Assembly: GCF_007362775.1 (NCBI RefSeq)
Contig: NZ_CP041692.1
Span: 3,100,001-3,164,000 of the forward strand
DNA: 64,000 nt
Reading direction: 5' to 3'
Origin: Microlunatus elymi
GTDB taxonomy: Bacteria > Actinomycetota > Actinomycetes > Propionibacteriales > Propionibacteriaceae
Part shown: positions 20,835-39,152 of the stretch, in pieces
Layout of the letters: each line of letters opens with the position of its first letter
How positions within the stretch are numbered: the first letter of the stretch is position 1
The notes under the pieces: generated by a model
The model's input: the letters and a program-made list of their open reading frames with translations, nothing else
What the model was told of the DNA's origin: nothing
The model's database searches: none
Program-made: the position numbers and the translations under genes

Positions 20835-23800
20835 GTCCGGACCCGATCGCCGAGCAGTTCGGCGGCCCCGGCCAGGAAGCCGTCCGCAGCATGGCCGGGC
20901 GCGAAATCGCCCAGGTAATAACGTCGCATCTGTTGCCGTTCGGCGCCCTTCGGATCGGTGATCAACAACTGGTCCAACGCGTCGTCCAGATCGCCGAGGT
21001 CCTCGGCGATCGGATAGCCTGCCGCGGCTGCCGGAGCCTCCGCGATCAACTCGTCTTCGGTCCGTCCGACGGCAACCACGGCGAACGGCTTACCTGAGGC
21101 AAGATAGTCGGAGATCACCGCCGACACGTCGGTGATCATCGCATCGGACGCGTTGAAGCAGTCCTCGACACTCATCTGCTGCTCAGCCTCCGCGCCCCAC
21201 AGATGCTGCCGCCCACTCGCCCGGCGGTCCTCCTCCAGCATCCGCGAGATCCGCTCGATCAGCTGCCGGTCGCCGGCGAATCGGTAGTTGAACGGATGCG
21301 CACGAAAGATCACCCGAACGCCGCGGCGCAGCAGCTCGGCGACGATGCTCTGCCCCTGCGGCAACGAGTAGACCCGGCTGTCCGCGTACGGTCCCTGCCA
21401 GGTCGGCGCGTACAGCACGGTCTGCTGCCCACTCGGCCGAGCCGCGGCGTCCGCGGTCTTGATCACCTCGGTCTGCGGCCGTCCGACGATCATGAACTTC
21501 TCCGCCGGGATGGTCACGTTGTGCCGGGCGTACCGGTCGACGGCAGCCTGCCCGGCGGCGAAGATCTTGTCGTAGATGGCATGCACCGGGTTGAAACAGG
21601 CCGGCTTCTCCGAGTCGCCGTGATTGAGCCAAACGTGGGTGAGTTCGCGGCGTTCGATCAGATGGGTGTTCCGGACCGCGTTGTTGACGTAGAACGCGAC
21701 CTTCATGCTCGGCACCACCACGTCCTCCAGGCTGCGCAGGGTCGGCCGATACAACACCGGCACCCCGGTCCCCCGGGTCAGCGCGGCGATCTCGGTCAGC
21801 ATCGGCAACGAACGGGTGATGATCACGAACGGCCGGCCGATCCGGATGAAGTACGGCAGCCACATGCCCACCTGATAACCGGCCCCGATCCCGGAGCCGA
21901 AGTAAACGCAGAATTCGGGCGCCCGACGCCGCAACACGTCCAGAACCGACGCCTCTGCCAGCACCGCCGCCCGCAGCCGGGCCCGCGCCGACCGGAGCGC
22001 GATGATGATCAAGATCAGGTACGCCGCCGCGGCGAGGGCCCACAACCCGTCGAACACCGAAACGGTCCCCGGCAGCAGATCGCCGACCGTGGCCAGCAGG
22101 AAACCCAACAGGGACAGCAGAATCGATCCGATGGACAGCCGGTGCAGCCAGGGCGACGTGGCCGGCACGGTCAGCTCCGGCAGCCCGTCGGCGATCACCC
22201 CCGGATACTCCCAGCCCTCCCGGACGGCGACCTCCAGCGCCAGTGCGATCAAGATCACCGTCGTGACGACTGCGGCGATACCGGCATCGTGCTGGGTGCC
22301 CAGCGCCGCGCCGGCGGCCAGCAGCAAGATCATCCGTGGCCCGTCCAAGGGTGTGCCGGCAGGCCCCTCGGATTGCTGCCACAGGGTCGGAATCGCTACC
22401 AGGGCGGCGATCAGTGCGGCGGCCAAGCCGACCCAGCCGTGGCCGCCCAGTGCGGCGGTCAGCGCCGCAACCGCGGCGACGCCGCTGATCATGGTCCGAG
22501 CCAGGCTGTCCAGGTTGCGCCGGATGGTGTCCCGGCTGACCCCGGTCGACCCGTCGTCGGACTCGGCCGGCTCCGCGATCGACGGCGGCGGGTTGTCACA
22601 GGCCGCGCGGACCGCGTCGACGAAGGTGTCGGCGTAACCGTCGACCGGGAAGTCGCCGAGGTAGTCGGCCCGCACCTCGGCTCGTACCTCGGTCAGCCGA
22701 TCGCCGGCCGGCAGCAGCAATTCGTCCAGCGCCGCGGGCAGCCGGTCAAGATCGTGATCGATCAGGTACGCGGCCCGGGCCACCGGATAGTCGGCGACGA
22801 ACTGCTCGAGATCATCGGCCGCGGCTTTCGACGAGGCCGGAGCGATCATCGCCAACGGCTTGCCGGAGAACAGGAAGTCCGACACCACCGCGGACACGTC
22901 GCTGATCATCACGTCGGCCAGATTCATGCAGCCCAAGGCGTCCAGCTCGGTCTCCGCGGCCGGCCCGTAGCGGTGCCCGGAACCGTTAGCGGCGTCAGCG
23001 GCGTCAGCGGAGAGCATCGCCTGCACGCGGCGGATGATCGCCGTGTCGGCCTCGTCGGCGTAGCTGAACGGATGCGGCCTGAAAATCACCCGCGCCCCAC
23101 GCGCCAGCAGCGCGCCGACAATTGCCTCGGCTCGATCCAGCGAGCTCAGTGCGGTCTCGCTGACGTGCCCACGCCAGGTCGGCGCGTACAAGATCACCGG
23201 CGGCGCCCCAGCCAGCCGCTCGGCGATCCGTTCCGGATCCGGCTGCCGGACCACCTCGACCTGCGGCCGGCCGACCACCCGGAATTTGCTCTTGTCGATC
23301 AGCACCCCGTGCGCCGCGTAGCGCCGGTTGGCGGCCGGCCCGGCGGTGAAGATCCGGTCGTACATCGCGTGCGTCGGGTTGTAGGACGGCGGCTTCTCCG
23401 AGTCGCCGTGGCCGAGATAGACGTGGGTCAGCTGGTGATAGCGGATCAGCGCCCCGTTGCCCGACGACGCGTTGACGTAGAACGCGGCCCGCAGCGACTC
23501 GGTCATGATCAGATCCAGCTCGGCGACGCCGCGGCAACACACCACCGGCACGTCGGCGAGCGAGCCGTCGAGGTGCCGGGCGATCGCCTCGGCCGGCAAC
23601 TCGTTGCGGGTGACGATCAAGAACCTGCGCCCGGCCCGGGCCAGATACGGCAGCCACATGATCAGCTGGTACGAGGCGTCGTCGGGACGAGCGGTGTAGA
23701 GCACGAACTCCGGCCGGTAGTCGGCGACCGCGTCGGCCAGGTTGCGCTGGAGCCGAGCCGCCACCCGGCGACGAGCCCGGACCTGGCGGACCAGTGCGCC

Positions 23801-24457
23801 GGCGGGCAGCACGCCGGCGACCGCGACCAGCAGGCCGATCCAGCCGGGCGATCCGGCCGCGCCGAGCACCGCGACCAGTGCGGTGACCAGCAGCGAGATC
23901 GGTGCGATCAGCCAGGCCGAAGCGGTCCGCTCGGGCAGTCGGGGCTGCCCCGGCAGACCGCGGGCGTAGGGCGCCGGCAGCCGCAGCAGCCGGACCAAAA
24001 ACGGTTCGATCGCGATCGTGCAGATCAAGACCGCGATGCCGACCCCGATCCAGAGGGCTCCGGTCCACTGCGTCCCGAACCAGGCCGACCCCGCACCACG
24101 ACTCCGGCTGGTCGTCCACGATCCGACCACCGCCGCGGCCGCCAGCATCCGCGAGCCGGCGAACCGGCCCAGTCCGCCGAGCCCGTTCCGCACCCGGAGC
24201 AGCGACCCGAGCCGGCCGGTCGGATAGATCGCCTCCGGCGGATCCTCGGCGGCGGCTTGCCGCGGGAACCGGAACGCCAGCCCAGCGAGCCCGAGCACCA
24301 GCAACAGCACCGCCGACCAGCGGCCGACCGTCGTACCGAGGGCGATGCCCGACCAGGCGGAGGCCGCCAGCAGTGCCGCGATCACCGCGGTCCCCGACGC
24401 CGAAGCAGTTGCCCGGCGCAGCACGCGGCTGGTCGGACCGTCCCCGGCCTGGGTCAT
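20831..24457 (-). CDS. Tandem double TagF-like membrane protein
   Basis: A 1,208-residue protein made of two complete anchored TagF-like units. Unit 1 has hydrophobic segments at about residues 20-240, then a catalytic region (FVLYTARPDDASYQLIMWLPYL, YLGHGDSEKPPSYNP, VILYAPTWRGH, VIFRPHPFSY, MISDVSAVVSDFLFSGKPLAMI) to about 625. Unit 2 repeats this: a second set of hydrophobic segments (about 650-840), then FCVYFGSGIGAGYQVGMWLPYF, WLNHGDSEKPACFNP, VLYAPTWQGP, VIFRAHPFNY and MITDVSAVISDYLASGKPFAVV. Both sets of H-G-D-S-E-K and D-V-S motifs are intact, so both halves may be active. The ATG at 24457 is preferred; the longer frame starts in the divergent promoter region. Confidence 0.82.
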   Translation of the reverse strand: MTQAGDGPTSRVLRRATASASGTAVIAALLAASAWSGIALGTTVGRWSAVLLLVLGLAGLAFRFPRQAAAEDPPEAIYPTGRLGSLLRVRNGLGGLGRFAGSRMLAAAAVVGSWTTSRSRGAGSAWFGTQWTGALWIGVGIAVLICTIAIEPFLVRLLRLPAPYARGLPGQPRLPERTASAWLIAPISLLVTALVAVLGAAGSPGWIGLLVAVAGVLPAGALVRQVRARRRVAARLQRNLADAVADYRPEFVLYTARPDDASYQLIMWLPYLARAGRRFLIVTRNELPAEAIARHLDGSLADVPVVCCRGVAELDLIMTESLRAAFYVNASSGNGALIRYHQLTHVYLGHGDSEKPPSYNPTHAMYDRIFTAGPAANRRYAAHGVLIDKSKFRVVGRPQVEVVRQPDPERIAERLAGAPPVILYAPTWRGHVSETALSSLDRAEAIVGALLARGARVIFRPHPFSYADEADTAIIRRVQAMLSADAADAANGSGHRYGPAAETELDALGCMNLADVMISDVSAVVSDFLFSGKPLAMIAPASSKAAADDLEQFVADYPVARAAYLIDHDLDRLPAALDELLLPAGDRLTEVRAEVRADYLGDFPVDGYADTFVDAVRAACDNPPPSIAEPAESDDGSTGVSRDTIRRNLDSLARTMISGVAAVAALTAALGGHGWVGLAAALIAALVAIPTLWQQSEGPAGTPLDGPRMILLLAAGAALGTQHDAGIAAVVTTVILIALALEVAVREGWEYPGVIADGLPELTVPATSPWLHRLSIGSILLSLLGFLLATVGDLLPGTVSVFDGLWALAAAAYLILIIIALRSARARLRAAVLAEASVLDVLRRRAPEFCVYFGSGIGAGYQVGMWLPYFIRIGRPFVIITRSLPMLTEIAALTRGTGVPVLYRPTLRSLEDVVVPSMKVAFYVNNAVRNTHLIERRELTHVWLNHGDSEKPACFNPVHAIYDKIFAAGQAAVDRYARHNVTIPAEKFMIVGRPQTEVIKTADAAARPSGQQTVLYAPTWQGPYADSRVYSLPQGQSIVAELLRRGVRVIFRAHPFNYRFAGDRQLIERISRMLEEDRRASGRQHLWGAEAEQQMSVEDCFNASDAMITDVSAVISDYLASGKPFAVVAVGRTEDELIAEAPAAAAGYPIAEDLGDLDDALDQLLITDPKGAERQQMRRYYLGDFAPGHAADGFLAGAAELLGDRVRT

Positions 24458-24621
24458 GGCGATGTCGTCTCCTGCCTCCTCGCGCGGCCGAGCGTGGCAC
24501 GCGCCGATCCGGATCACATGGATCGCGGCATCCGAGTTTATGGTGTCTCTCGCGATCCGAGCGGCCTCGCCCGCCGCGTGTCCGGATGGCCCCGCGTGTC
24601 GGTGAGGAGAGGTGGAGTTCG

Positions 24622-27600
24622 GTGTTGGCAGATGCCCGGAAGCAGTCCCGTCAGCTCGCCCGTCGGCTGAGCAAGCGGCTGCCCGCATCGGCGCAACGGG
24701 GGGCGCGCAACGGCTGGCGGCGGCTGCGGCCGTACGCCAAGCGGGTGTTCTACTCCCGGCCGGCGTCTCCCCTGGTGAGCATCGTCATCCCGATCTACAA
24801 CGTCGAGCGTTATCTGCCGGCCTGCCTGGACAGCGTGCTGTCCCAGTCCTATCCACATCTGCAGGTGATCGTGGTCGACGACGGGTCGCCGGACGACTCG
24901 TACGAGGTCGCTCGTGGCTACGCCGATAGCGACCGGCGGGTCCAGATCGTCCGCCAGCCCAATGCCGGTCTCGGCGCCGCGCGGAACACCGGTGCCCGGC
25001 ACGCCCGCGGCACCTTTTTGATGTTCATGGACTCCGACGACGTGCTCCGGCCGGACGCGATCCGGACCTACGTCCGGACGCTGCGCCAGACCGGTTCGGA
25101 TTTCGCGGTCGGCTCGTACGACCGGCTGAACTCCAACCAGACCTGGCCGGCCGCCTGGTGGATCCGTTCGGCGCACCGCTTCTCCCGACTGCGGACCAAC
25201 CTGGTCGAGTCCCCCGACATCTGCGTGAACGCGGTGGCCTGGAGCAAGTTCTACCGGCGCAGCTTCTACGACGAGCACGGCTTCGCCTTCCCCGAAGGCG
25301 TGCTGTACGAGGATCAGGCGCTGTCCGCTCGGGTGTACGCGACCGCACGGCAGTTCGACATCCTGGCCAAGATCACCTACGGCTGGCGGGTCCGGGAGGA
25401 TCGCAGCTCGATCACCCAGCAGTCCACCGACGTCGCCGATCTCCGAGCCCGGCTGCATGCCGCCGAGAACTCACTGGCCGAGTTGGCCGCCCCCGAACTG
25501 GAGGAGGTCCGGCAGGTCCGGCTGGCGCAGTATCTGAGCAACGACTTCCCGCTCAGCATCAAGACCGCCCAGCACGCCGACGACGCGTTCTGGGAACTGC
25601 TCACCGACGGTCTGAAGCGGCTCACCGCCGATGCGGGGCCGGAGGTCTGGCGCCGGGTCTCGGCCCAACACCGGGTGGCGATCAGGCTGGTGATCGAGGG
25701 GCACCGGGACGCGGTGATCGACTTCATCGGACTCGGCCACAACAATCCGAAGAACATCCCGTCCCTGGTCGCCGACGGCAACGTCTATCTGCAGGTACCG
25801 GCCCGCCGGCTGCTCGGGCTGGGGCCGACCGACCCGCTGCTGGCGCTCGCCGAACATCAGCTCGGCCTGGTGTCCAGCATCCGCCGCGCCCACTGGGACG
25901 CCGACCACCGCTTCCACATCGAGGGCTGGGCCTACATCGACAACGTCGACCTGGCCCAGTGCGACACCGCGACCACGATCACCGCGATCGAACGCAACAC
26001 CGGATTCGAGCTGGACCTGGACGTCGAGCTGCGGCCGTCGATCGAGGTCACCCAATCGACCAAGCACCGCTTCGCCCACTACGAGCCGTCCTGGTTCCAC
26101 GCCGTGCTCGATCTGCCCGCCGCGATCGAGCGTTGGCGGGCCGAGGCCGCACCGAACGGCGAGAATCCCACCGGCGCCGGATCCGATTGGCAGCTCCGGG
26201 TGACCGTCGCCTCCGGCGGGCTCACCCGCACCGGCACCTTGGCCGCGCCCGACCCGGGTGGTTCGGCGGGCCGGCTGCAGGCCGACTTCCTGCCCGACGG
26301 TCAGCGGGTCGAGGTGACCTACTCCGGCAAGACCGGACTGCTGCTCGCCGCACGACGTCCGGCGTGCACCCTGCACGAGGTCGCACTCAACGGTCGGCGC
26401 CTCGCCCTGTCGGTGGTTGCCGACGAGGATTTCCGGCCCCATCAGGTCGAGGTCCGGCAGGCGGACGGCGGCCAGGTGGCTCGCGGCCGGTTGACGGCGG
26501 GCCAGGACGGGGTGGCGCGAACGGAGCTGACGCTGCCGCCGGCACGTCCGAGCCGAGCAACCGATGGCGGGCCGATCTGGGAGGTCTCGGCGCTGACGGT
26601 GGACGGATCCCGGAGTCCGATCCACTGGCCGCCCGGCGTAGCGCAGCCGTCGTCGACTGCTGCACCGATCCTCGAATCCGATCGATTCGGTGCCTTGGTC
26701 GTGAACGACCGACCGGTCGTGGTCCGGGTGGATCGTGCCGTGGTCACCGCTGCCGGGCTGCAGATCGGTGGCAGGGTGCACGGCACGAGCGCGGCCGGCC
26801 TGAGCCTGCGGTTGCTCGGCCCGAAGGCGTCTGCGGAGGCCGAGATCACCGAGCAGGAAGGCAACCGGTTCGCGGCAACCATCCAGTTGCAGGCGGACCC
26901 GTGGGCGCTGGGACGGCTGCCGCTGCCGATGGGCGACTACGTCCTGATGGCCACCCGGGATTCAACGGCACAAGCCGCCGTGACAACCGAGCCGATCGCC
27001 GATACGGCGGTACAGGTGGACGCGGCGCTGGTCAGCCGGTTGCCGGTTGAATTTCGCACCGATCGGCTCCGGGGACAGCTTCGAATCGACAGGTCACTAT
27101 CGCTCGGCCTGCGCCTGGTTCCGCCGTTGGCCGATGGTGAGGTCGGTGCCCGTAACCAGCAGCGACTGCAGGACGAACTTCGGAACCGGTTGACCGACAC
27201 CACGTTCGAGCCGGGCGCGGTGCTCTTACGTTCCTACTACGGCGAAATCTGCGGCTGCAACCCCCGCGCACTCCACGAATACCTCCACAACCACCCAGAA
27301 ACCCCCGGCAGCCCCTACAAAATCTATTGGGCCATAAAAGACTACTCAGTCCACGTACCCGACGGCGGCATTCCCGTACTCCACGACAGCACCGAATGGT
27401 ACCGACTCCTCCACGACGCCCAGTACTACATGGACAACATGCACCAACCCCTCTACCACAAAAAACCAGCCCACCAAACCCAAATCCAAACCTTCCACGG
27501 CTACCCATTCAAACAAATGGGCCTCTCCCACTGGACCAGCCAAGGCCGCGACATCGCCCACATCCAGTCCTACCTCGACCGCGCCGCCGACTGGGACTAC

Positions 27601-28338
27601 CTCATCTCCCCCGCCACCTACGGCACCGGACCCCTGGCCCACGAATTCGGCTACCCCCACAAACCCCTCGAAATCGGCTACCCCCGCAACGACATCTTCT
27701 TCTCACCCCACAAAAACACCATCACCACCACCACCCGCCAACGACTCGGCATCCAACCCCACCAAACCGCAATCCTCTACGCCCCCACCTTCCGCGACGC
27801 CCTCAGCCTCGACGACAACACCGCCGCCATGGTCGACCACCTCGACCTCAACCAACTCACCACCGAACTCGGCCCCAACTACGTCATCCTCGTCCGCGGC
27901 CACGCCTTCAACGCCCGACTCCCCCAACGCATCAACACCCACACCACCACCGGACACCACACCATCATCGACGTCACCGACTACCCCGACATCGCCGAAC
28001 TCTGCCTCGCCTCCGACGCCGCAATCCTCGACTACTCCTCCCTCCGATTCGACTACGCCCTCACCGGCAAACCCATGATCTTCATGGTCCCCGACCTCCA
28101 CCAATACCAAAACGAAACCCGCGGCTCCCTCTGGCGCTACGAACCCACCGCCCCCGGACCCCTAGCCACCACCACCACCGACATCATCAAAAACATCCAC
28201 AACCTCCAACAAACCCACCACAACTACACCAACGCCTACCAAACATTCCACCGCGACTTCCTCGACCTCGACGACGGAAACGCCACCCAACGACTCACCC
28301 AAACAATCTTCGGACCGTCACCGGATACGGTTTCATGA
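24622..28338 (+). CDS. GT2 glycosyltransferase - TagF-like phosphotransferase fusion, copy 1
   Basis: A 1,238-residue fusion. A basic N-terminus (1-50) leads to a GT-A family 2 glycosyltransferase (50-300) with VSIVIPIYNVERYL, VVDDGSPDDS, MDSDD and VLYEDQALSAR. The middle (about 300-860) has no named domain that I recognise; it includes GGSAGRLQADFLPDG (residue 546 on) and WALGRLPLPMGDYVL (761 on), which recur in two other proteins here. The C-terminus (about 868-1230) is TagF-like: TFHGYPFKQMG, LEIGYPRNDIFF, LYAPTFRD, LVRGHAF and ILDYSSLRFDYALTGKP. The GTG at 24622 follows GGAG. From 27223 the coding strand almost loses G in third codon positions. An IS256 element begins 9 bases after the stop. 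Confidence 0.85.
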   Translation: MLADARKQSRQLARRLSKRLPASAQRGARNGWRRLRPYAKRVFYSRPASPLVSIVIPIYNVERYLPACLDSVLSQSYPHLQVIVVDDGSPDDSYEVARGYADSDRRVQIVRQPNAGLGAARNTGARHARGTFLMFMDSDDVLRPDAIRTYVRTLRQTGSDFAVGSYDRLNSNQTWPAAWWIRSAHRFSRLRTNLVESPDICVNAVAWSKFYRRSFYDEHGFAFPEGVLYEDQALSARVYATARQFDILAKITYGWRVREDRSSITQQSTDVADLRARLHAAENSLAELAAPELEEVRQVRLAQYLSNDFPLSIKTAQHADDAFWELLTDGLKRLTADAGPEVWRRVSAQHRVAIRLVIEGHRDAVIDFIGLGHNNPKNIPSLVADGNVYLQVPARRLLGLGPTDPLLALAEHQLGLVSSIRRAHWDADHRFHIEGWAYIDNVDLAQCDTATTITAIERNTGFELDLDVELRPSIEVTQSTKHRFAHYEPSWFHAVLDLPAAIERWRAEAAPNGENPTGAGSDWQLRVTVASGGLTRTGTLAAPDPGGSAGRLQADFLPDGQRVEVTYSGKTGLLLAARRPACTLHEVALNGRRLALSVVADEDFRPHQVEVRQADGGQVARGRLTAGQDGVARTELTLPPARPSRATDGGPIWEVSALTVDGSRSPIHWPPGVAQPSSTAAPILESDRFGALVVNDRPVVVRVDRAVVTAAGLQIGGRVHGTSAAGLSLRLLGPKASAEAEITEQEGNRFAATIQLQADPWALGRLPLPMGDYVLMATRDSTAQAAVTTEPIADTAVQVDAALVSRLPVEFRTDRLRGQLRIDRSLSLGLRLVPPLADGEVGARNQQRLQDELRNRLTDTTFEPGAVLLRSYYGEICGCNPRALHEYLHNHPETPGSPYKIYWAIKDYSVHVPDGGIPVLHDSTEWYRLLHDAQYYMDNMHQPLYHKKPAHQTQIQTFHGYPFKQMGLSHWTSQGRDIAHIQSYLDRAADWDYLISPATYGTGPLAHEFGYPHKPLEIGYPRNDIFFSPHKNTITTTTRQRLGIQPHQTAILYAPTFRDALSLDDNTAAMVDHLDLNQLTTELGPNYVILVRGHAFNARLPQRINTHTTTGHHTIIDVTDYPDIAELCLASDAAILDYSSLRFDYALTGKPMIFMVPDLHQYQNETRGSLWRYEPTAPGPLATTTTDIIKNIHNLQQTHHNYTNAYQTFHRDFLDLDDGNATQRLTQTIFGPSPDTVS
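27124..28315 (+). repeat. 1,192-bp near-identical direct repeat, copy 1 (3' end of fusion gene 1)
   Basis: It aligns without gaps to 32221-33412 at an offset of 5,097 bases. I found only four substitutions (27165, 27180, 27844, 27900), one of which changes an amino acid (Asp to Asn). Identity stops sharply after TTCGGAC near the stop codons and begins at CCGTTGGCCGATGG. The rest of the two genes is clearly more diverged, so this segment was recently duplicated or homogenised. Confidence 0.9.
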
Positions 28339-28339
28339 A

Positions 28340-29732
28340 TCCGCGTAGGGACTGTAATTTTAACGGTGTAACTCCTGAGACGAAGGAGACACCTGTGACT
28401 GACGTGACGAGTAGGGATGTGGCTGCTGCTGACGGGCAGGAGCTGTCGGCCAGCGATCAGCAGCTGGTGCGCGAGCTGACCGATCGGGCCCGGGCCAACG
28501 GGTTGCAGCTGACCGGTCAGGGCGGCTTGCTGGGCCGGCTGACGAAGATGATCGTCGAGGGCGCCCTGGAGGGTGAGATGGATGATCACCTGGGGTATGC
28601 CAAGCATGATCCGGTCGGCCGGGACGGCGGTAACTCCCGCAACGGCTACCGGGCCAAGACGCTGTTGACCGAAGCCGGGCCGGTTGATGTTTCGGTGCCG
28701 CGGGACCGGGACGGCAGTTTCGAGCCGACGATCGTGGCGAAGCGGCAGCGGCGACTGTCTGGGGTGGAGGACCTAGTGATCTCGCTGTCGGCGAAGGGAC
28801 TCACGACCGGGGAGATTTCGGCGCACCTCGCCGAGGTGTATGGGGCGGAGGTGTCGAAACAGACGATCTCGACGATCACCGACCGGGTGATGGAGGGGCT
28901 GGCCGCCTGGCAGTCTCGTCCGTTGGACCCGGTGTATGCGGTGCTGTTCATCGACGCGATCCAGGTCAAGATCCGGGAGGGTGAGGTCTGCAACCGGCCG
29001 ATCTACCTGGCCCTGGGTGTCACCGCCGACGGTGAGCGTGACGTGCTCGGCCTGTGGGCCGGTGAGCACGGCGACGGGGAAGGTGCCAAGTACTGGCTGC
29101 GAGTGCTGACCGAGATCAAGAATCGTGGCACCAACGATGTGTGCATGCTGGTCTGCGACGGGCTGACCGGACTCCCTGACGCGGTGTCGGCGGTGTGGGA
29201 CAAGACGATCGTGCAGACCTGCATCGTGCATCTGCTGCGGAACTCGTTCAAATACGCCTCGAAGAAGGACTGGGGGTCGGTCGCCAAGGACCTGAAACCG
29301 GTGTATACCGCCGCCTCCGAGGCCGAAGCGCTGGACCGGTTCGCCGACTTCAGCTCCAAGTGGGAGAAGCGTTACCCGGCGATCATCCGGCTGTGGACCA
29401 ACGCTTGGGCAGAGTTCGTCCCATTCCTGCAGTTCGACCGCGAAATCCGCACCGTGATCTGCACGACGAATGCGATCGAGTCGATCAACGCCCGACTCCG
29501 GCGAGCGGTCAATGCCCGCGGTCATTTCCCCACCGAGCAGGCAGCGCTGAAGTGCCTGTACCTGGCGATCATGAGTCTCGATCCGACCGGCCGAGGACGC
29601 AAACGCTGGACCAACCGATGGAAGGCAGCACTCAACGCCTTCGACATCACCTTCGACGGACGCCTATCCGCCGGACGCAACTAACAAGATCAAAAATCAG
29701 TTACACCGAAAACTTGACAGACCCTCCGCGTA
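28340..29732 (+). mobile_element. Complete IS256-family insertion sequence with 8-bp target duplication
   Basis: The element spans 28348-29724 (1,377 bp). The left end begins GGGACTGT and continues to CGGTGTAACT; the right end read in reverse begins GGGTCTGT and also runs to CGGTGTAACT, giving imperfect inverted repeats of about 26 bp. The direct repeat TCCGCGTA flanks both sides (28340-28347 and 29725-29732). An 8-bp duplication is typical of IS256 elements. Intact ends, duplication and open transposase frame point to a recent insertion, 1 base beyond the stop of fusion gene 1 counting the duplicated target. Confidence 0.95.
28395..29684 (+). CDS. IS256-family transposase
   Basis: A 429-residue mutator-type DDE transposase that cuts and pastes its element through the inverted repeats. 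Typical features are the N-terminal LVRELTDRARANGLQLTGQGGLLGRLTKMIVEGALEGEMDDHLGY, the RNGYRAKTLLTEAGPVDVSVPRDRDGSFEP block, first catalytic Asp in YAVLFIDAIQVKIREG, second Asp in VCDGLTGLPDAVSAVW and the Glu in TTNAIESINARLRRAVNARGHFPTE. No frameshift or premature stop is seen. The GTG at 28395 follows GAAGGAGAC at proper spacing. Confidence 0.96.
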   Translation: MTDVTSRDVAAADGQELSASDQQLVRELTDRARANGLQLTGQGGLLGRLTKMIVEGALEGEMDDHLGYAKHDPVGRDGGNSRNGYRAKTLLTEAGPVDVSVPRDRDGSFEPTIVAKRQRRLSGVEDLVISLSAKGLTTGEISAHLAEVYGAEVSKQTISTITDRVMEGLAAWQSRPLDPVYAVLFIDAIQVKIREGEVCNRPIYLALGVTADGERDVLGLWAGEHGDGEGAKYWLRVLTEIKNRGTNDVCMLVCDGLTGLPDAVSAVWDKTIVQTCIVHLLRNSFKYASKKDWGSVAKDLKPVYTAASEAEALDRFADFSSKWEKRYPAIIRLWTNAWAEFVPFLQFDREIRTVICTTNAIESINARLRRAVNARGHFPTEQAALKCLYLAIMSLDPTGRGRKRWTNRWKAALNAFDITFDGRLSAGRN

Positions 29733-29754
29733 GTCAACTCGGCATCGAGAAGGG

Positions 29755-32700
29755 ATGAGTGTGCAGAAGTTCGTACGACGCACCAGGCAACAATTGCGTG
29801 GTCTGGCCATCCGGACGTTGAATGCGGGGACCGGTGATGCGCCGCCGCAGCGGTTGGCCAAGGCCGGGGTGAAGCGTTTGCGTTCCGTTCGGCGCGCCGC
29901 GTCCAAGCCGGCTGCTCCGCTCGTCAGCATCGTGATCCCGGTCTACAACGTGGAGCGCTATCTGCGGGCCTGTTTGGACAGTGTGCTGACGCAGTCGTAC
30001 ACCGATCTACAGGTGGTCGTGGTCGACGACGGGTCACCCGACTCCTCGGTCGACATCGTTCGCGAGTACGCGCAGCGAGATCGTCGCGTGCAGCTCGTCC
30101 GCCAGGCCAATGCCGGCCTTGGGGCAGCGCGCAACACCGGCGCCCGGCACGCCCGCGGCGTGTTCCTGATGTTCGTTGATTCCGACGACGTGCTTCCCAC
30201 GCATGCCATCGCGAACTATGTACGTACCTTGCAGAAGACCGGCTCGGACTTCGCCGTTGCCCCGTACGAGCGGATGAACGACGCGCGGACCTGGCCGGCA
30301 GCGCCGTGGATCCGCACCGCACACCGCGAGCCGCGGCTGCGTACCGACCTGAGCAGCGCTCCGGACATCTGCGTCAACGCCATCGCCTGCAGCAAGCTCT
30401 TTCGTCGCAGCTTCTGGGAAGAGCAGGGATTCGCCTTCCCCGAGGGAGTGCTGTACGAGGACCAGGCGCTGTCGACACGCATCTACGCCCGCGCGCGGCA
30501 GTTCGACATCCTCGACAAGATCACCTATCGGTGGCGCGCCCGGGACGATCGCAGCTCCATCTCTCAGCAGAACACCTCGGTTGCGGACCTCCGGGCCAGG
30601 CTCAGAGCGGCGAAGGACTCGCTGGCGGAGTTGGACCTGCCCGGCTTGGAACACGTTCGCAACACCCGGCTCGCGCAGTACCTGAACAATGACTTCCCGC
30701 AATCGATCAAGGCGTCCCAGCACGCCGACGACGAGTTCTTCCAGGTGCTTGCCGACGGGCTGAAACAGCTCACCGCCGACGCCGAGCCCGAGGTCTGGAG
30801 CCTGGTCTCGGCTCAACACCGAATTGCGATCGCGCTGGTCGTCGGTGGCCACCGGGAGGCGACGACCGAGTTCGTCGGCCTCGGCCACAGCAACCCGAAG
30901 AACCTTCCCGGCATCGTTGCGGACGGCAAGGTGTATCTCGACACTCCGGCCCGCCAACCGCTGGGTCTCGAGGCCACCGATCCGCTACTGGCTCTGGCCG
31001 ACCACCAACTGGGACTCGTCACGAGCATTCGCCGCGCTTACTGGGACGAGGACCACGACTTCCATGTCGAAGGCTGGGCCTACATCGACAACGTCGATCT
31101 CTCCCGGTGTGAGACCGAGGTGAGGATCTTCGCGGTCGAAGGCGGGACGGGCACGGAGTTCGACCTTCAGGTGCAGCGGCAGCCGTCCGCCGAGGTCACG
31201 CAGGCCAGCAAACATCGTTTCGCCAACTACGAACCGTCCTGTTTCCGCGCCACGCTGGCGTTCTCCGGGGCCTCCGCAACGCTCGGTGATGCTGCCGGCC
31301 AGGCCGAATGGCAACTCTGGGCGTCGGTGACATCCGCCGGAATCCACCGAACGAAGCTCCTGACCGGCGTCGATCGGGGCGGTTCGGCGGGCCGGCTGCA
31401 GGCAGACTTCCTGCCCGACGGGACCCAGGTCGACGTGTCGTACTCTGCGAAGTCAGGTTTGACGCTGACTGCGCACCACCCGCGCGCCGTGGTGGCCGAA
31501 GCTTCGATCCAGGCGCGGACCCTGCAGCTGTCGGTGATCGGCACGGACGATCTCCGACCGGTACGACTCGAGCTGGCCGGCAACCGCAGCAAGAGGCAGT
31601 TGACGGCGGATTTCACCCGCGAGGACGACGTCCCGTCGGCGAGGATCGAGGTGCCGACGCCGCAGATCGACGAGCGTTCGGATCCGCCGATCGATCGAGA
31701 GAACTGGACGCTGCGCGTTGTCGACGCGGACGGCGGCCGGCACCCGATTGCCTGGCCGGCGCAGTCCGTACCGTCGCCGGGATCCAATCCGTACCTGCAA
31801 CGGACGCAGTACGGCAACATCGGGGTGGTCGACGAGCCCCACGGCGTACGCGTTGACGATCTTGCGGTGGCCGACGGCGTCCTGCGGGTGCACGGCGTGG
31901 TGACCGGGGGTACGGCAGACGATCTGACGCTTCAGCTGAGGACATCCAAAGCCAGCGCCCGAGCCGAGCTGCGCGAGGCGACCGGCAGCCGATTCGTCGC
32001 CGACATCGAATTGGTCGATGACCCCTGGGGCCTCGGTGCGCTACCGCTACCGATCGGCGATTACGTGCTGGCGGCATCGCTCGAAGGCGTCCGCGCCGAG
32101 GTGCCGGTGCGGATGACCGACGCTCTGATTGCGCGACTGCCGATGGCGCTGGAGTCCGAACGCCTTCGTGGCGCGCTGCGGTTGCATACGCCGAATCTGC
32201 TCACGGTCCGCTTGCAGGCGCCGTTGGCCGATGGTGAGGTCGGTGCCCGTAACCAGCAGCGGCTGCAGGACGAACTCCGGAACCGGTTGACCGACACCAC
32301 GTTCGAGCCGGGCGCGGTGCTCTTACGTTCCTACTACGGCGAAATCTGCGGCTGCAACCCCCGCGCACTCCACGAATACCTCCACAACCACCCAGAAACC
32401 CCCGGCAGCCCCTACAAAATCTATTGGGCCATAAAAGACTACTCAGTCCACGTACCCGACGGCGGCATTCCCGTACTCCACGACAGCACCGAATGGTACC
32501 GACTCCTCCACGACGCCCAGTACTACATGGACAACATGCACCAACCCCTCTACCACAAAAAACCAGCCCACCAAACCCAAATCCAAACCTTCCACGGCTA
32601 CCCATTCAAACAAATGGGCCTCTCCCACTGGACCAGCCAAGGCCGCGACATCGCCCACATCCAGTCCTACCTCGACCGCGCCGCCGACTGGGACTACCTC

Positions 32701-33438
32701 ATCTCCCCCGCCACCTACGGCACCGGACCCCTGGCCCACGAATTCGGCTACCCCCACAAACCCCTCGAAATCGGCTACCCCCGCAACGACATCTTCTTCT
32801 CACCCCACAAAAACACCATCACCACCACCACCCGCCAACGACTCGGCATCCAACCCCACCAAACCGCAATCCTCTACGCCCCCACCTTCCGCGACGCCCT
32901 CAGCCTCGACGACAACACCGCCGCCATGGTCGACCACCTCAACCTCAACCAACTCACCACCGAACTCGGCCCCAACTACGTCATCCTCGTCCGCGGACAC
33001 GCCTTCAACGCCCGACTCCCCCAACGCATCAACACCCACACCACCACCGGACACCACACCATCATCGACGTCACCGACTACCCCGACATCGCCGAACTCT
33101 GCCTCGCCTCCGACGCCGCAATCCTCGACTACTCCTCCCTCCGATTCGACTACGCCCTCACCGGCAAACCCATGATCTTCATGGTCCCCGACCTCCACCA
33201 ATACCAAAACGAAACCCGCGGCTCCCTCTGGCGCTACGAACCCACCGCCCCCGGACCCCTAGCCACCACCACCACCGACATCATCAAAAACATCCACAAC
33301 CTCCAACAAACCCACCACAACTACACCAACGCCTACCAAACATTCCACCGCGACTTCCTCGACCTCGACGACGGAAACGCCACCCAACGACTCACCCAAA
33401 CAATCTTCGGACGGCAATCCGAGGCGCCCGAATCCTGA
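29755..33438 (+). CDS. GT2 glycosyltransferase - TagF-like phosphotransferase fusion, copy 2
   Basis: A 1,227-residue paralogue of the upstream fusion with the same layout: basic N-terminus, GT2 domain (55-305; VSIVIPVYNVERYL, VVDDGSPDSS, VDSDD, VLYEDQALSTR), an unassigned middle with GGSAGRLQADFLPDG (about 542) and WGLGALPLPIGDYVL (about 758), and a TagF-like domain from about 858. The GT2 part is similar to copy 1 but the middle has diverged strongly, whereas the last 1,192 bp are almost identical. AGAAGGG abuts the ATG at 29755, so the in-frame GTG at 29761 (6 bases from AAGGG) may be the true start. The IS256 element sits just upstream and may have separated it from the promoter of copy 1. 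Confidence 0.84.
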   Translation: MSVQKFVRRTRQQLRGLAIRTLNAGTGDAPPQRLAKAGVKRLRSVRRAASKPAAPLVSIVIPVYNVERYLRACLDSVLTQSYTDLQVVVVDDGSPDSSVDIVREYAQRDRRVQLVRQANAGLGAARNTGARHARGVFLMFVDSDDVLPTHAIANYVRTLQKTGSDFAVAPYERMNDARTWPAAPWIRTAHREPRLRTDLSSAPDICVNAIACSKLFRRSFWEEQGFAFPEGVLYEDQALSTRIYARARQFDILDKITYRWRARDDRSSISQQNTSVADLRARLRAAKDSLAELDLPGLEHVRNTRLAQYLNNDFPQSIKASQHADDEFFQVLADGLKQLTADAEPEVWSLVSAQHRIAIALVVGGHREATTEFVGLGHSNPKNLPGIVADGKVYLDTPARQPLGLEATDPLLALADHQLGLVTSIRRAYWDEDHDFHVEGWAYIDNVDLSRCETEVRIFAVEGGTGTEFDLQVQRQPSAEVTQASKHRFANYEPSCFRATLAFSGASATLGDAAGQAEWQLWASVTSAGIHRTKLLTGVDRGGSAGRLQADFLPDGTQVDVSYSAKSGLTLTAHHPRAVVAEASIQARTLQLSVIGTDDLRPVRLELAGNRSKRQLTADFTREDDVPSARIEVPTPQIDERSDPPIDRENWTLRVVDADGGRHPIAWPAQSVPSPGSNPYLQRTQYGNIGVVDEPHGVRVDDLAVADGVLRVHGVVTGGTADDLTLQLRTSKASARAELREATGSRFVADIELVDDPWGLGALPLPIGDYVLAASLEGVRAEVPVRMTDALIARLPMALESERLRGALRLHTPNLLTVRLQAPLADGEVGARNQQRLQDELRNRLTDTTFEPGAVLLRSYYGEICGCNPRALHEYLHNHPETPGSPYKIYWAIKDYSVHVPDGGIPVLHDSTEWYRLLHDAQYYMDNMHQPLYHKKPAHQTQIQTFHGYPFKQMGLSHWTSQGRDIAHIQSYLDRAADWDYLISPATYGTGPLAHEFGYPHKPLEIGYPRNDIFFSPHKNTITTTTRQRLGIQPHQTAILYAPTFRDALSLDDNTAAMVDHLNLNQLTTELGPNYVILVRGHAFNARLPQRINTHTTTGHHTIIDVTDYPDIAELCLASDAAILDYSSLRFDYALTGKPMIFMVPDLHQYQNETRGSLWRYEPTAPGPLATTTTDIIKNIHNLQQTHHNYTNAYQTFHRDFLDLDDGNATQRLTQTIFGRQSEAPES
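32221..33412 (+). repeat. 1,192-bp near-identical direct repeat, copy 2 (3' end of fusion gene 2)
   Basis: Partner of 27124-28315, with the same reading frame and gapless alignment. Both copies share the coding-strand depletion of G described for copy 1. Confidence 0.9.
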
Positions 33439-33470
33439 CTCGGATTGTGATCGGATCGGTCCTGTCGCCG

Positions 33471-33606: not shown

Positions 33607-33631
33607 GGGCAGGAGCGGTGGTGGAAGCGGG

Positions 33632-34384
33632 TCAGGCGGCAGCGAAAGCAGGCCCGAGATCGCCGGCGACCTGTGCGGTGATCACCGGCCGCAGTTCGCT
33701 TGCGGATGCGTTCGGATCGGCCGCCGCGAGCAACTCGAAGATGCTCGATTGCAGCACCTTCTCCGGCGCCGGAACGGTCAACCGGTCGATGATGCGCTCG
33801 GGGACCGGCTGCGGGTCGCTGTGCCGGAATTCCAGCAGGATCTGGGCGTAGTTGTCGGCAAGGACCGTGCTGTCGGGGTCCAGGCCGGTGATCAGCAACA
33901 TGCCGGTCGGGGTTGTGCCGATCGGGATCACCGCGAGATCGGGCCGGTACTTCGCGAACACGTCGATGATCTGGTAGACGTCGCCGGTCCAGGCACTGGT
34001 GTGCCGATCTCGAGCGGCTTCGTCCACATTTCGCGGCAGCATGTCGTCGAAAATGATCATGCCCTTGGCGCTGGAACAGCGCTCGGCGTTGATGAAGTCC
34101 CGGAGCGCGTACTCGAAGATGTGCAGCCCGTCGATGAAGGCGAATTCGAACGGGCGACCGCCGGTGGGTGCGAGCGGATCCGGCCGAGAGAAGTACTCGT
34201 CACTGGACGTACGGAAAAGCGCGATGTCCCCGTCCAACTGAGCAGTGATGTGATACGTCGGGTCGATGGCCACGGAACGGCACTTCGACAACGCGAGGGT
34301 GTTGCCGGTGGCCACACCGATCTCCAAGTACGCCTGCGGCTTGAGCCGTTCGTGCGTCTGGGCCAGGAAGGGGCGGTAATCCAC
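33632..34384 (-). CDS. Class I SAM-dependent methyltransferase
   Basis: A 250-residue protein with a Rossmann-type SAM site: AYLEIGVATGNTLALSKCRSVAIDP (motif I, with the acidic residue after the next strand), FAFIDGLHIFEYALRDF (motif with Asp and His, as in the Methyltransf_24 group) and GMIIFDDMLP. It probably methylates a sugar or polyol in the surface polymer, as methyltransferases of this group often occur in such clusters; the acceptor is unknown. GTG at 34384 has GAAAGG upstream. It lies 57 bases after the GT61 gene, likely in one operon. Confidence 0.8.
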   Translation of the reverse strand: MDYRPFLAQTHERLKPQAYLEIGVATGNTLALSKCRSVAIDPTYHITAQLDGDIALFRTSSDEYFSRPDPLAPTGGRPFEFAFIDGLHIFEYALRDFINAERCSSAKGMIIFDDMLPRNVDEAARDRHTSAWTGDVYQIIDVFAKYRPDLAVIPIGTTPTGMLLITGLDPDSTVLADNYAQILLEFRHSDPQPVPERIIDRLTVPAPEKVLQSSIFELLAAADPNASASELRPVITAQVAGDLGPAFAAA

Positions 34385-36469: not shown

Positions 36470-39025
36470 TCAACCGGCGAGCAATGCGTCGACAGCGCGC
36501 TCGGCGGCGCGCCCGTCGTCCAGGGGGTTGAATTTCTGCTGCCACGCTCGGTAGTTGTCGGCGTGCGCCTTCGCGACCTCGTCCAGATCCCGCAGTGCGT
36601 CGATCGTCTCGTCTGTCGTCCGCAGCACGGGCCCGGGCGCGGAGGCGGCCAGATCGAAGTAAGTTCCCCGGCGAACGTCGCTGTACTCCTCCAGATCCGG
36701 TACGAAGAAGATTATCGGCTTGCCCGTGACGCTGAAATCGAACATCGTCGACGAGTAGTCGGTGATCATCACATCGCTGGCCAGGTACAGATCCGACAAC
36801 TGCGGATAGAGCGTCACGTCGAGAAGTCGCTCGCCCGCCACACCGCGGCCATATTTCACGACATTGGGATGCCCACGCACCAGGAGTCGGCCGGTCGGGC
36901 CGAGGAAAGACGTCACCGCATCGAAGTCGAGTTCCCGGAACAGACCCTTGGCCTGCTCCCGCCAGGTGGGAGCGTACAGAACGACCCGGTCCGCGCCCTC
37001 GATCCCCAACCGCTGCCGCACCGAATGGCGGTACGCGTCGTCCGCGCGGACAAGCACGTCATTGCGCGGATAGCCGATCTGCAGGATGTTTCCACGATAA
37101 CCGTAGGCGGATTCGAAGATCTTCTTGCTGTATTCGTTCTGCGCAATGAGAAAGTCCCACTGACCGACTTCTTCCGCGGTTTTGCGACGATATTCGTCAC
37201 CGCGCCGAATTCCGATCCGGTCGTTACCGAGGAGTTTGAGCGGCGTACCGTGCCAGGCCTGCAGCACACGTTGATGGTCCCGGCGCCGGAACCGGCCCGG
37301 CAGCCAGCAATTGTCGATGATGTAGCGCGAGCTGGTCAGCGCCCGCCACCACTCGGCGCTCTTGTAGACCAGTCCGGTGGTGCCGCCGGGGACCTCGACC
37401 GAATAATCGGCAACCGTCCACAGCAAACGCAGATCCGGCCGTCGATCGGCGATGACGTCGGCGATGGCCAGGCTGTTGTCGCTGACCGACTTGCCGAAGT
37501 AGCTGTTGAGCAGCACAGTGTCGGTGGGGGCGACCGGGCCGGACACGTGCCGATTCTCCAGCCGGCGGACCGTGTACTTGCTGCGTTCGCCCGCTGCCAG
37601 CGGCGGACCGATCCGGATCGTCAGGGCGTCTGCCCGGCCCCGGCGGATTTCGAACGTGTTGCCCGCGGTACGCACCGTCCGCGGCAGCGTCTCGGCCAGT
37701 TCTGCGTCCAGCGTCGCCTTCACCTCGGCCTCGGCGGTCGGGCCGCGATCAGCACGATCGACGCTCGTGGTCAGTTCGTAGTCACCGAGTGCCAGCGGCA
37801 CCGGCGTCAGCCCCCAGTCGTGAATCGCGGTCTGGGCGAACTCGATGGCGAATCTGCCGTCACCGATCTCCAGCCCGGAGGCTTCCACCGTGCGCCGCCC
37901 GGCAACCAAGCGCCAGTCCGCTGGATCGGCGCAGACCGCGTGACATGTCCCGCTGATCCTCAGCCGACCGGAATCGCCGCAGTCATCCGAACGGCCCGGC
38001 GTGAGGTCGATCCGGTCCACCACCAGCCGGTAGGGATGGACGTCGAGCCGGACGACGCCGTTGGGTCCGAATCGAACCGCGGCGCGGGGGTCGGTGGCCG
38101 ACTGCTGACGGAATCCGTGCCGCGCGTCGCCCTGCCAGTGGACGTGCCGGGTTGCTCCGTCGGCGTCGGCAACCAGCAGATACCAGGACTGAGCACGCAG
38201 TGACGTCGGATCCAGATCCAGCGCCTCGGCGTACGAACCGGAAATCTCGACCGCCCCGGCGTCCGCTTCGCGCAGTCGCAGCGGGATGTCGGTGTTCTCA
38301 CGCCGAAGGAGTGCGGTCGTCGCCGCGAAGTCACCGCGGCGTTCGACGGTTGCGACGAACTGGTCTGCTTCCAGCGCCACGTCGCGCAGCGAGAAGGCAC
38401 GTCTCGACACGACGATGCTCAAGCCGCGGCCCTTGCTCCAGGTGGGCCGGGCCAGTAGACCTCGGCCCAGAAAGCCGGCGTTGAGTTGACCCGCCGAGCC
38501 CCCGTCGTCGCGGTCACGGAGTCGGTCGGTGACGTCCCCGGCCTCGTCTCGTACGACCAGCTGAACCTGCCAGGTGTGTTCGAAGACGGACGAGGCGTCG
38601 TCGCGTAGCTCGGCCGGCACCAGCTGGATCAGATCGATCACGGCTCGGAACCCCGAATGCGTCCGGTCCTGCATCGGGCTCTTGGAGAAGTCGTTGAACG
38701 CCGCCGAGCACAGCGGCTCGACCGGAAGCTCGTACGAGTTGTCGCCGCGAACCAGCCGTACGCCGATCACCCGCGTCCCGTTCAGCGTGTCGCCGCGCCG
38801 CCAGGCAGCCCCCTCGAGCACCAGGCGCCGGACGCCCGCGTAGTCGGGTTCGGCCCAGCAGACGCGGAGCAGTCGGGAGGTCAGCGCGTTCGGCGGCTGC
38901 TCGGACTCGACCGGCTGCTGCGCGTCCTGCTGCTTGGGATTCGGAGCTGAAGCCGAGGAGCCGGACAGCTGCCGGACCCGACCGACAAGCCGCTTCAGAG
39001 GTGAGCCCAGTTCGATCTTGGTCAT
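36470..39025 (-). CDS. TagF-like CDP-polyol phosphotransferase with N-terminal beta-rich region
   Basis: An 851-residue protein. Residues 485-851 form the TagB/TagF catalytic domain: QAWHGTPLKLLGNDRIG (H-G-T motif), LQIGYPRNDVLVRADD, VLYAPTWREQ, LLVRGHPNV and VMITDYSSTMFDFSVTGKPIIFF. It therefore has the full set of conserved motifs. Residues 1-480 are beta-rich and unassigned. They share GGSAGQLNAGFL (175 on) and WGLTPVPLALGDYEL (about 404 on) with the middle of both GT2-TagF fusions, in the same order. AAGGAG precedes the ATG at 39025. It is read away from the divergent CDP-ribitol synthase gene, with 127 bases between them. Confidence 0.85.
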   Translation of the reverse strand: MTKIELGSPLKRLVGRVRQLSGSSASAPNPKQQDAQQPVESEQPPNALTSRLLRVCWAEPDYAGVRRLVLEGAAWRRGDTLNGTRVIGVRLVRGDNSYELPVEPLCSAAFNDFSKSPMQDRTHSGFRAVIDLIQLVPAELRDDASSVFEHTWQVQLVVRDEAGDVTDRLRDRDDGGSAGQLNAGFLGRGLLARPTWSKGRGLSIVVSRRAFSLRDVALEADQFVATVERRGDFAATTALLRRENTDIPLRLREADAGAVEISGSYAEALDLDPTSLRAQSWYLLVADADGATRHVHWQGDARHGFRQQSATDPRAAVRFGPNGVVRLDVHPYRLVVDRIDLTPGRSDDCGDSGRLRISGTCHAVCADPADWRLVAGRRTVEASGLEIGDGRFAIEFAQTAIHDWGLTPVPLALGDYELTTSVDRADRGPTAEAEVKATLDAELAETLPRTVRTAGNTFEIRRGRADALTIRIGPPLAAGERSKYTVRRLENRHVSGPVAPTDTVLLNSYFGKSVSDNSLAIADVIADRRPDLRLLWTVADYSVEVPGGTTGLVYKSAEWWRALTSSRYIIDNCWLPGRFRRRDHQRVLQAWHGTPLKLLGNDRIGIRRGDEYRRKTAEEVGQWDFLIAQNEYSKKIFESAYGYRGNILQIGYPRNDVLVRADDAYRHSVRQRLGIEGADRVVLYAPTWREQAKGLFRELDFDAVTSFLGPTGRLLVRGHPNVVKYGRGVAGERLLDVTLYPQLSDLYLASDVMITDYSSTMFDFSVTGKPIIFFVPDLEEYSDVRRGTYFDLAASAPGPVLRTTDETIDALRDLDEVAKAHADNYRAWQQKFNPLDDGRAAERAVDALLAG

Positions 39026-39152
39026 CAAACTCCTTGCAATTGCCGACGACGCGACGCAGCCCGGCTCGGCCCAGCAGTGATACGAACGCTGCGAAGGTAC
39101 CACCTGGTCCAGCCGGCGAGGATCCTTGTCGGAGACACGTTAGGGTCATCGA

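What the first reader, a model, noticed from the sequence alone, without database searches (positions are those of the whole stretch)
24622..33438. Twin GT2-TagF fusion genes with a homogenised 1.2-kb catalytic module
Two adjacent paralogues of about 1,230 residues differ throughout their GT2 and, more so, middle domains. Their last 1,192 bp (27124-28315 and 32221-33412) align without gaps with only four mismatches found by eye. The boundary of identity is sharp on both sides. This looks like gene conversion or module replacement that keeps one TagF domain constant while the glycosyltransferase and middle parts vary, a possible mechanism for diversifying a surface polymer.
Basis: seen in the sequence. 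Interest (0 to 1): 0.75.

Follow-up and report, generated by a model that had tools for sequence, protein, structure and literature searches.

The report
Recoded, copied module in wall-polymer genes
Two neighbouring bacterial genes for building a cell-wall polymer share an almost identical 1.2-kb catalytic segment that was rewritten in this lineage to avoid G and T on its coding strand, a signature described mainly in antibiotic-assembly (polyketide) genes and a chance to study how such rewriting arises.

Summary
[quoted passage not shown] None of 25 congeneric TagF regions, 78 loci from a wide scan or 28 further loci is skewed like this. Module and upstream part have the same local tree, so the module was probably rewritten in place. 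Changes are one-way: 91 of 218 conserved G lost, hardly any gained; 49 of 49 invariant columns survive. Best reading: a GRINS-like element outside polyketide synthases, homogenised by recent gene conversion. The cause of recoding is inferred; adaptive polymer diversification is not shown.

The parts
24622..28338 (+). Gene A: GT2-middle-TagF fusion, 1,238 aa (GTG start)
   Evidence: Pfam PF00535 at residues 53-193 and PF04464 at 862-1230; start as in a database protein of 1,238 aa on a contig of the same length
29755..33438 (+). Gene B: GT2-middle-TagF fusion, 1,227 aa
   Evidence: Pfam PF00535 at residues 58-220 and PF04464 at 850-1218
27122..28315 (+). Copy A of the near-identical tract (TagF catalytic module)
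   Evidence: 4 mismatches to copy B over 27124-28315; exact ends
32219..33412 (+). Copy B of the near-identical tract
27232..28315 (+). Skewed (recoded) core of copy A; third positions A or C at 94% after the change point against 51% before it
   Evidence: change point; fine skew profile
32329..33412 (+). Skewed (recoded) core of copy B; third positions A or C at 95% after the change point against 50% before it
   Evidence: change point; fine skew profile
27151..28320. GRINS by the procedure described in PMC9899208 (blastn used for the pairwise step)
32251..33420. GRINS by the procedure described in PMC9899208 (blastn used for the pairwise step)
28348..29724 (+). IS256/Mutator-type insertion sequence, 1,377 bp, 8-bp target duplication TCCGCGTA, inserted between A and B
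   Evidence: Pfam PF00872; ends and target duplication; 11 full-length near-identical copies in the genome counting this one
20831..24688 (-). Neighbour with two PF04464 stretches (true start may lie inside the ORF)
19320..20834 (-). Neighbour with a borderline PF04464 match (21.8 bits, cut-off 22.1; 22.4 bits in the genome search)
33632..34384 (-). Neighbour, methyltransferase domain PF13578
34442..36337 (-). Neighbour, glycosyltransferase 61 (PF04577)
36470..39103 (-). Neighbour, further TagF-domain protein (PF04464)

Best explanation
A and B are old tandem paralogues in a teichoic-acid-type wall-polymer cluster of a Microlunatus species. Their last 1.1 kb, the TagF catalytic domain, was recoded in this lineage so that its coding strand is purged of G and, less strongly, T (the complementary strand is G/T-rich). 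The recoded module is now almost identical in the two genes through recent gene conversion. [quoted passage not shown] Shown: identity, sharp ends, skew, one-way changes against congeners, preserved active-site columns. Supported by trees: recoding in place. Inferred: that the G/T-rich, TGG-rich strand makes the tract a good RecA substrate so that A and B keep converting, and that conversion or repair biased towards A/C on the coding strand ratchets the composition until only constrained positions keep G and T.
For: Identity and boundary. Skew: at its peak -0.54 (GC) and -0.35 (TA) over 1 kb, against a background GC-skew sd of 0.054 and a maximum of 0.275 in 15,280 windows from 80 x 20 kb; over the whole module -0.47 and -0.31. 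GRINS criteria were seen in passages of PMC10394414 (about 1 kb, often >90% identity, both skews >25%) and PMC9899208 (method); the method calls only these two tracts in the window. Recoding: CAG to CAA, CTG to CTC, AAG to AAA and so on. Of sites unanimous in three congeners (copy A): G>A 49 and G>C 42 of 218, G>T 0, T>C 10 and T>A 3 of 141, against C>G 1 and C>T 1 of 246 and A>G 1 of 133; upstream the changes are roughly balanced. Four-fold sites with G in all three congeners: 22 of 23 lost it in the core; upstream 4 of 35 (A) and 11 of 32 (B) did. Trees of GT2+middle and of the module both give ((G006,G012),(G011,(A,B))). Amino acids moved too: Thr/Asn/His/Gln/Lys/Pro 36.5% against a mean of 20.7%, sd 1.5%, maximum 23.8% in the 118 other homologues listed. 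0 of 49 invariant columns broken. TGG 60 per kb on the complementary strand against 14 in the upstream parts and 17 in background; RecA filaments are most stable on TGG repeats (PMC3763553, abstract and passages). RecA is encoded.
Against: One genome only: no population data, so the number and direction of conversion events are unknown, and a single recent copying would leave the same picture. The TGG enrichment is about what base composition alone gives (hand calculation from the base counts), and the RecA link is untested here; PMC3763553 reports that TG-rich DNA does not help RecA nucleation. The published definition places GRINS inside one PKS, and this genome has no sign of an assembly-line PKS (4 ketoacyl-synthase matches). 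The PNAS GRINS paper itself was not available. The pairing of A with B in the GT2+middle tree has only moderate support (81/85), and the tree program flagged the module rows for odd composition, so their exact place is less certain. A mild negative third-position GC skew is usual in these genes (mean -0.16 in 78 loci, lowest -0.35; down to -0.31 in a congener). The identical tract begins with 110 bp without skew, so conversion does not need the skew; and downstream of copy B the TA skew goes on for some 200 bp beyond the tract while the GC skew fades.
Confidence: 0.8

Rival explanations
1. Ordinary single gene-conversion event between paralogues; the skew is a separate older property of the domain that happens to lie in the tract.
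For: Conversion between tandem paralogues is common; the identical tract is 110 bp longer than the skewed core at its 5' end.
Against: The GC skew ends about where the identity ends at the 3' side and begins close to its start. No TagF homologue examined has a like skew: 0 of 25 congeneric TagF regions, 0 of 78 and 0 of 28 further loci, sets that overlap in part. So it is not an old property of the domain, though it may be older than the last conversion.
Confidence: 0.2
2. Module replacement by horizontal transfer from a donor with C/A-ending codons.
For: Abrupt change of composition and codon usage.
Against: The module's protein tree has the same local topology as the rest of the gene, inside Microlunatus. 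In the protein search (1,664 matches, best 120 listed) only A and B themselves exceed 72% identity, and in 57 relatives the best DNA match outside this genome is 72%. Composition bias makes the fine placement of a long branch less certain.
Confidence: 0.06
3. Selection for translation speed or expression produced the codon bias.
For: C-ending codons are favoured for some amino acids.
Against: ORFs of the ribosomal-protein operon of the same genome use the opposite codons: AAG 161 to AAA 1, CAG 71 to CAA 2, CTG 88 to CTC 30, CCG 80 to CCC 9. The module has AAA 9 to AAG 0, CAA 18 to CAG 5, CTC 32 to CTG 2, CCC 22 to CCG 4. The bias also changes amino acids.
Confidence: 0.03
4. Single-type strand damage (for example cytosine deamination of the template strand).
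For: G>A on the coding strand is the commonest change (49 of 218).
Against: G>C transversions are nearly as common (42 of 218), T>C and T>A occur, G>T is absent; one deaminase cannot give this.
Confidence: 0.05
5. Assembly artefact: a repeat duplicated or collapsed in assembly.
For: No reads were available to test it.
Against: Two different flanks, four single-base differences, one contig rated complete that also resolves 11 full-length near-identical 1.38-kb IS copies. The skew itself cannot be made by assembly.
Confidence: 0.03
6. Diversification device for a surface polymer: TagF is held constant while GT2 and middle parts vary.
For: Module constant, upstream divergent; the locus is a wall-polymer cluster.
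Against: Middle parts vary as much between the close orthologues of other species (47-50% aa among G006, G011 and G012); no functional data and no other strain of the species were at hand. Mosaic upstream parts were not specifically searched for.
Confidence: 0.12

Closest known systems
[quoted passage not shown] Nivina et al., PNAS 2021 (not held; known here from passages of PMC10394414, PMC9899208 and PMC11907408)
   Same: About 1-kb coding tract, near-identical second copy close by, GC and TA skews above 25%, protein recoded with biased composition, link to gene conversion.
   Different: Not in a PKS: two separate adjacent wall-polymer genes, one domain only, in a genome without sign of an assembly-line PKS. 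Here unskewed orthologues in the same genus allow the changes to be polarised.
Concerted evolution of bacterial paralogues such as tuf (passages of PMC6053082)
   Same: Paralogues kept alike by gene conversion, synonymous sites included.
   Different: That study treats concerted evolution across the full length of genes; here one domain is homogenised and its base composition has been rewritten.
TagF/TarF-type CDP-glycerol:polyglycerol-phosphate glycerophosphotransferases (PF04464; solved structure 3L7I)
   Same: The module aligns over 377 of its residues with 3L7I (2.3e-50). The histidines aligned with TagF H444 and H584 are kept (B residues 947 and 1082; the catalytic role of the two is recalled).
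   Different: Fused to a GT2 domain and a middle part without a Pfam match at the default cut-off (one weak match at E 0.027 in B); the polymer made is unknown.

Membership tests
GRINS | Region of about 1 kb | tested here: met
   Skewed core about 1.08 kb (27232-28315, 32329-33412); called tracts of 1,170 bp
GRINS | High DNA identity (>80%, often >90%) to another region nearby | tested here: met
   1,188 of 1,192 positions identical, 5.1 kb apart
GRINS | Intense GC and TA skew (>25%; >15% in the method used) | tested here: met
   -0.54 and -0.35 at peak over 1 kb, -0.47 and -0.31 over the module; method call
GRINS | The copies lie within the same assembly-line PKS | tested here: not met
   Two separate GT2-TagF genes; the genome has 4 ketoacyl-synthase matches, two of them partial. 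Hence filed as GRINS-like, a variant, not as a PKS GRINS
GRINS | Recodes the protein-coding region | tested here: met
   Codon counts, polarised changes, amino-acid shift
GRINS | Promotes gene conversion | tested here: inconclusive
   The pattern is what conversion leaves, but that the skew promotes it was not tested
TagF/TarF-type glycerophosphotransferase (PF04464) | Domain match above cut-off | tested here: met
   273.6 and 271.9 bits, cut-off 22.1
TagF/TarF-type glycerophosphotransferase (PF04464) | Conserved active-site residues | tested here: met
   Both histidines align (their role is recalled); 0 of 49 invariant columns broken
TagF/TarF-type glycerophosphotransferase (PF04464) | Transfers glycerol phosphate to a growing polymer | not testable with these tools
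   No biochemistry. The NCBIfam TarF model matches at 207 and 206 bits, under its cut-off of 550
Diversity-generating retroelement (definition recalled) | Adenine-specific changes against a template repeat, with reverse transcriptase | tested here: not met
   Changes remove G and T, not A; no reverse transcriptase among the 28 different window reading frames scanned with Pfam, a part of the 196 ORFs listed

The most novel reading that the evidence does not exclude
A local, strand-specific recoding process, not tied to polyketide synthases, acts on tandem repeats that convert each other. Each round of conversion or repair favours A/C over G/T on the coding strand, so the tract is ratcheted away from G and T at synonymous and even amino-acid-changing sites until only essential positions resist. 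GRINS would then be the end product of biased gene conversion between close repeats in any gene family, and this locus, with unskewed orthologues in the same genus, would be a place where the process can be dated and its rules read.
Probability: 0.35. Interest if true: 0.85.

Novelty: new variant of a known kind. Interest (0 to 1): 0.66.

Why it matters
How GRINS arise is, as far as I recall from the original abstract, unknown, and in multi-module PKSs it is hard to know what a recoded region looked like before. Here one recoded pair has unskewed orthologues in the same genus, so the direction of the changes can be read: 42% of the conserved G lost (91 of 218), none to T, G>A and G>C about equally, almost no reverse changes, invariant columns untouched. 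That makes mechanisms (biased conversion, mutator, selection on strand composition) directly testable in a simple two-copy system, and shows that such recoding can reach a wall-polymer enzyme and alter its amino-acid make-up.

Tried and rejected
Translation selection was rejected with the ribosomal-protein operon. Import from another lineage was disfavoured by trees and the protein search. A simple deaminase was rejected by the change spectrum. An IS-driven duplication was rejected: the IS256-type element has its own 8-bp target duplication, lies outside both tracts and exists in 11 full-length near-identical copies counting this one, so it is a recent insertion between genes that were about 31 bp apart before (my count from 28338, 28348, 29724 and 29755 less the duplicated 8; one search printed 33 with rougher ends). 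RNA structure: the coding strand of the core is much less structured than synonymous versions with the genes' own upstream codon usage (-14.6 against -31.8 kcal/mol per 120 nt, sd 1.2), but mononucleotide shuffles give nearly the same (-13.2, sd 1.0), so it follows from base composition and is no separate evidence; the same null shows that the module's amino-acid sequence alone would give a GC skew of about -0.20 of the -0.53 seen in the core. An Rfam scan of 19000-40000 and a tRNA scan of the window found nothing. Milder skews elsewhere (both above 0.2 in L064, L065, L190, L193, L200, L239, L242) do not reach the module's GC skew; L064 and L065 hold no direct repeat over 31 nt in the stretches scanned, and the L190 stretch has a 76% relative elsewhere, under the 80% GRINS limit; the other four were not checked for copies.

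Errors of mine that were corrected: and 28 loci on the minus strand were read on the wrong strand; one search turned most of them and the last four. Of the 30 loci the skew count uses 28 (2 own, 26 others from 17 of the 19 congeneric genomes); L049 and L050 match GT2 only and were left out, and L042 covers no TagF part, so 25 of the 26 are TagF regions. The 28 are the 30 loci less the two own copies; one search found matches in 26 of 396 genomes, the own one included. The trees use the 19 rows longer than 3,300 bases. The 80 background stretches were mostly evenly spaced, not random.
Full report
What is there. A DNA search finds the module nowhere else in the 5.12-Mb, single-contig genome, which has 9 PF04464 places in all. 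Each tract is the C-terminal part of a fusion of a GT2 glycosyltransferase, a middle part without a Pfam match at the default cut-off, and a TagF-type glycerophosphotransferase domain. The genes sit in a wall-polymer cluster with three more PF04464 neighbours (one borderline), a GT61 enzyme and a methyltransferase. An IS256/Mutator-type element of 1,377 bp with an 8-bp target duplication lies between the genes; it exists in 11 full-length near-identical copies counting this one and is a late, separate insertion.

Age of the pair. Upstream of the module the paralogues are old: 74% aa identity in GT2, 49% in the middle part, and four-fold sites identical at 55 of 115 and 75 of 157, against 192 of 195 in the module. 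A is at least as close to the nearest orthologue in other Microlunatus (GT2 81% and middle 53% with G011) as to B. The module was therefore copied between A and B long after they separated. One of the four differences can be polarised clearly: at 27844 four congeners have Asp, so the Asn of B is new and came by G>A. Organism names come from record titles: G012 is M. endophyticus, G002 M. kandeliicorticis, G004 M. speluncae and G008 M. parietis by equal contig lengths; G006 is Microlunatus sp. Gsoil 973 by equal contig length, and G011 is probably M. soli, whose contig length is close but not equal.

The overlooked feature. Within the module G and T are scarce on the coding strand. The 1-kb GC skew reaches -0.54 and the TA skew -0.35; over the whole module they are -0.47 and -0.31. 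In 80 stretches of 20 kb from the same genome (31% of it; 15,280 windows of 1 kb) the GC skew has sd 0.054 and a maximum of 0.275, and no window has both skews above 0.3 with the same sign. At third positions the GC skew is -0.80 and the TA skew -0.74 and -0.81 in the two copies, against -0.06 and -0.04 (GC) and +0.12 and +0.21 (TA) just upstream. A single change point puts the start at 27232 and 32329, 110 bp inside the identical tract. The GC skew ends about with the tract; downstream of copy B the TA skew goes on for some 200 bp.

Only here, as far as looked. After correction of strands none of 25 TagF regions from congeners has |GC skew| above 0.13 or |TA skew| above 0.07. None of 78 loci from a wide scan has a GC skew below -0.15 or a TA skew below -0.09, and no 1-kb window in them has both skews above 0.25 with one sign; two low-GC loci have a positive GC skew of 0.22-0.23 without TA skew. 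A mild third-position GC skew is usual (mean -0.16, lowest -0.35). None of 28 further loci, from a search of 396 genomes of the phylum of which 26 matched, has a 1-kb window with both skews above 0.2. The sets overlap in part. In a protein search with 1,664 matches, of which the best 120 were listed, the next relatives after A and B are at 72% identity.

Recoded in place. Trees of GT2 plus middle and of the module have the same local topology, ((G006,G012),(G011,(A,B))); the module's stem is long (0.34 against 0.11 for G011). Support for A with B is 81/85 in the first tree and 100/100 in the second, for G011 next to them 81/93 and 90/88, and the program warns that A and B have an odd amino-acid make-up in the second. 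Taking sites where G006, G011 and G012 agree as the older state, 91 of 218 G were lost in copy A (49 to A, 42 to C, none to T) and 13 of 141 T (10 to C, 3 to A), while only 1 of 246 C and 1 of 133 A became G, and 1 of 246 C became T. Upstream the same count is roughly balanced. At four-fold sites 22 of 23 conserved G were lost and 21 of 22 conserved C kept; upstream 31 of 35 (A) and 21 of 32 (B) conserved G were kept. The pressure reached the protein: in the last 370 residues Thr rose from 15-18 in these three congeners to 36, Asn from 7 to 17, His from 13-16 to 26, and Val fell from 23-26 to 8. The share of Thr/Asn/His/Gln/Lys/Pro is 36.5% against 20.7% (sd 1.5%, maximum 23.8%) in the 118 other homologues listed. 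The amino-acid sequence alone would give a GC skew of about -0.20; the rest of the -0.53 in the core is codon choice. Yet none of 49 columns invariant in 30 other homologues is broken (3 of 73 columns at 90% are; other rows break 0-5 of 67-69), and the two histidines aligned with TagF H444 and H584 of 3L7I are kept (their role is recalled). The enzyme is therefore probably active.

Comparison with known things. PMC10394414 describes GRINS as regions of about 1 kb with high identity to another region of the same PKS and GC and TA skews above 25% (passages). PMC9899208 gives a method (150-nt windows, step 30, identity above 80% over at least 500 bp, both skews above 0.15; passages). I applied that method with blastn in place of pairwise alignment: it calls 27151-28320 and 32251-33420 and nothing else in the window. 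By sequence features this is a GRINS pair. By the published setting it is not: the genes are not PKS genes, and the genome has only four ketoacyl-synthase matches, two of them partial. From memory, the abstract of the original paper says that GRINS occur in a broad range of phyla and gene families; I could not read it. I found no paper on GRINS in teichoic-acid or glycosyltransferase genes in the listings; most subscription papers are not in that library.

How it may work. Shown: one-way changes against congeners and near-identity of the two copies; supported: recoding in place and recent homogenisation. Inferred: the complementary strand is rich in TGG, GTG and GGT (60, 50 and 67 per kb against 17, 18 and 23 in 400 kb of background), about what its base composition predicts. 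RecA filaments are most stable on TGG repeats through slower loss of monomers, though not through better nucleation (PMC3763553, abstract and passages). A tract of this kind may pair and convert easily, and if repair of the mismatches favours A/C on the coding strand, repeated conversion would drive the composition further. Against a simple deaminase stand the many G>C changes; against translation selection stand the ribosomal-protein genes, which use the opposite codons; against import stand the trees.

Gene conversion is supported. The proposed purpose, varying a surface polymer while one domain is held constant, is not shown: the middle part varies as much between close orthologues of other species. 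The more interesting fact is the recoding.

Noticed in passing
28348-29724: Recent IS256/Mutator-type insertion between A and B with an 8-bp target duplication; 11 full-length near-identical copies in the genome counting this one.
   Followed up: yes
33458-33613: Three tandem 52-bp repeats directly downstream of gene B, between converging genes; ten weaker matches (70-91% over part of the stretch) elsewhere in the genome.
   Followed up: partly
L190:7401-9100 (C1:427401-429100), L193:3501-5000, L064:18101-19700: Milder same-sign skews (GC 0.20-0.27, TA 0.2-0.46); the L190 stretch has a 76% relative at C1:655326-656999. Possibly genomic islands.
   Followed up: partly
   Followed up: partly
20831-24688, minus strand: Protein with two divergent TagF-type domains and hydrophobic stretches in the translation; a further borderline TagF-type gene follows at 19320-20834.
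   Followed up: no
4013-9405, minus strand: ORFs resembling respiratory nitrate reductase beta subunit and a molybdopterin oxidoreductase.
   Followed up: no
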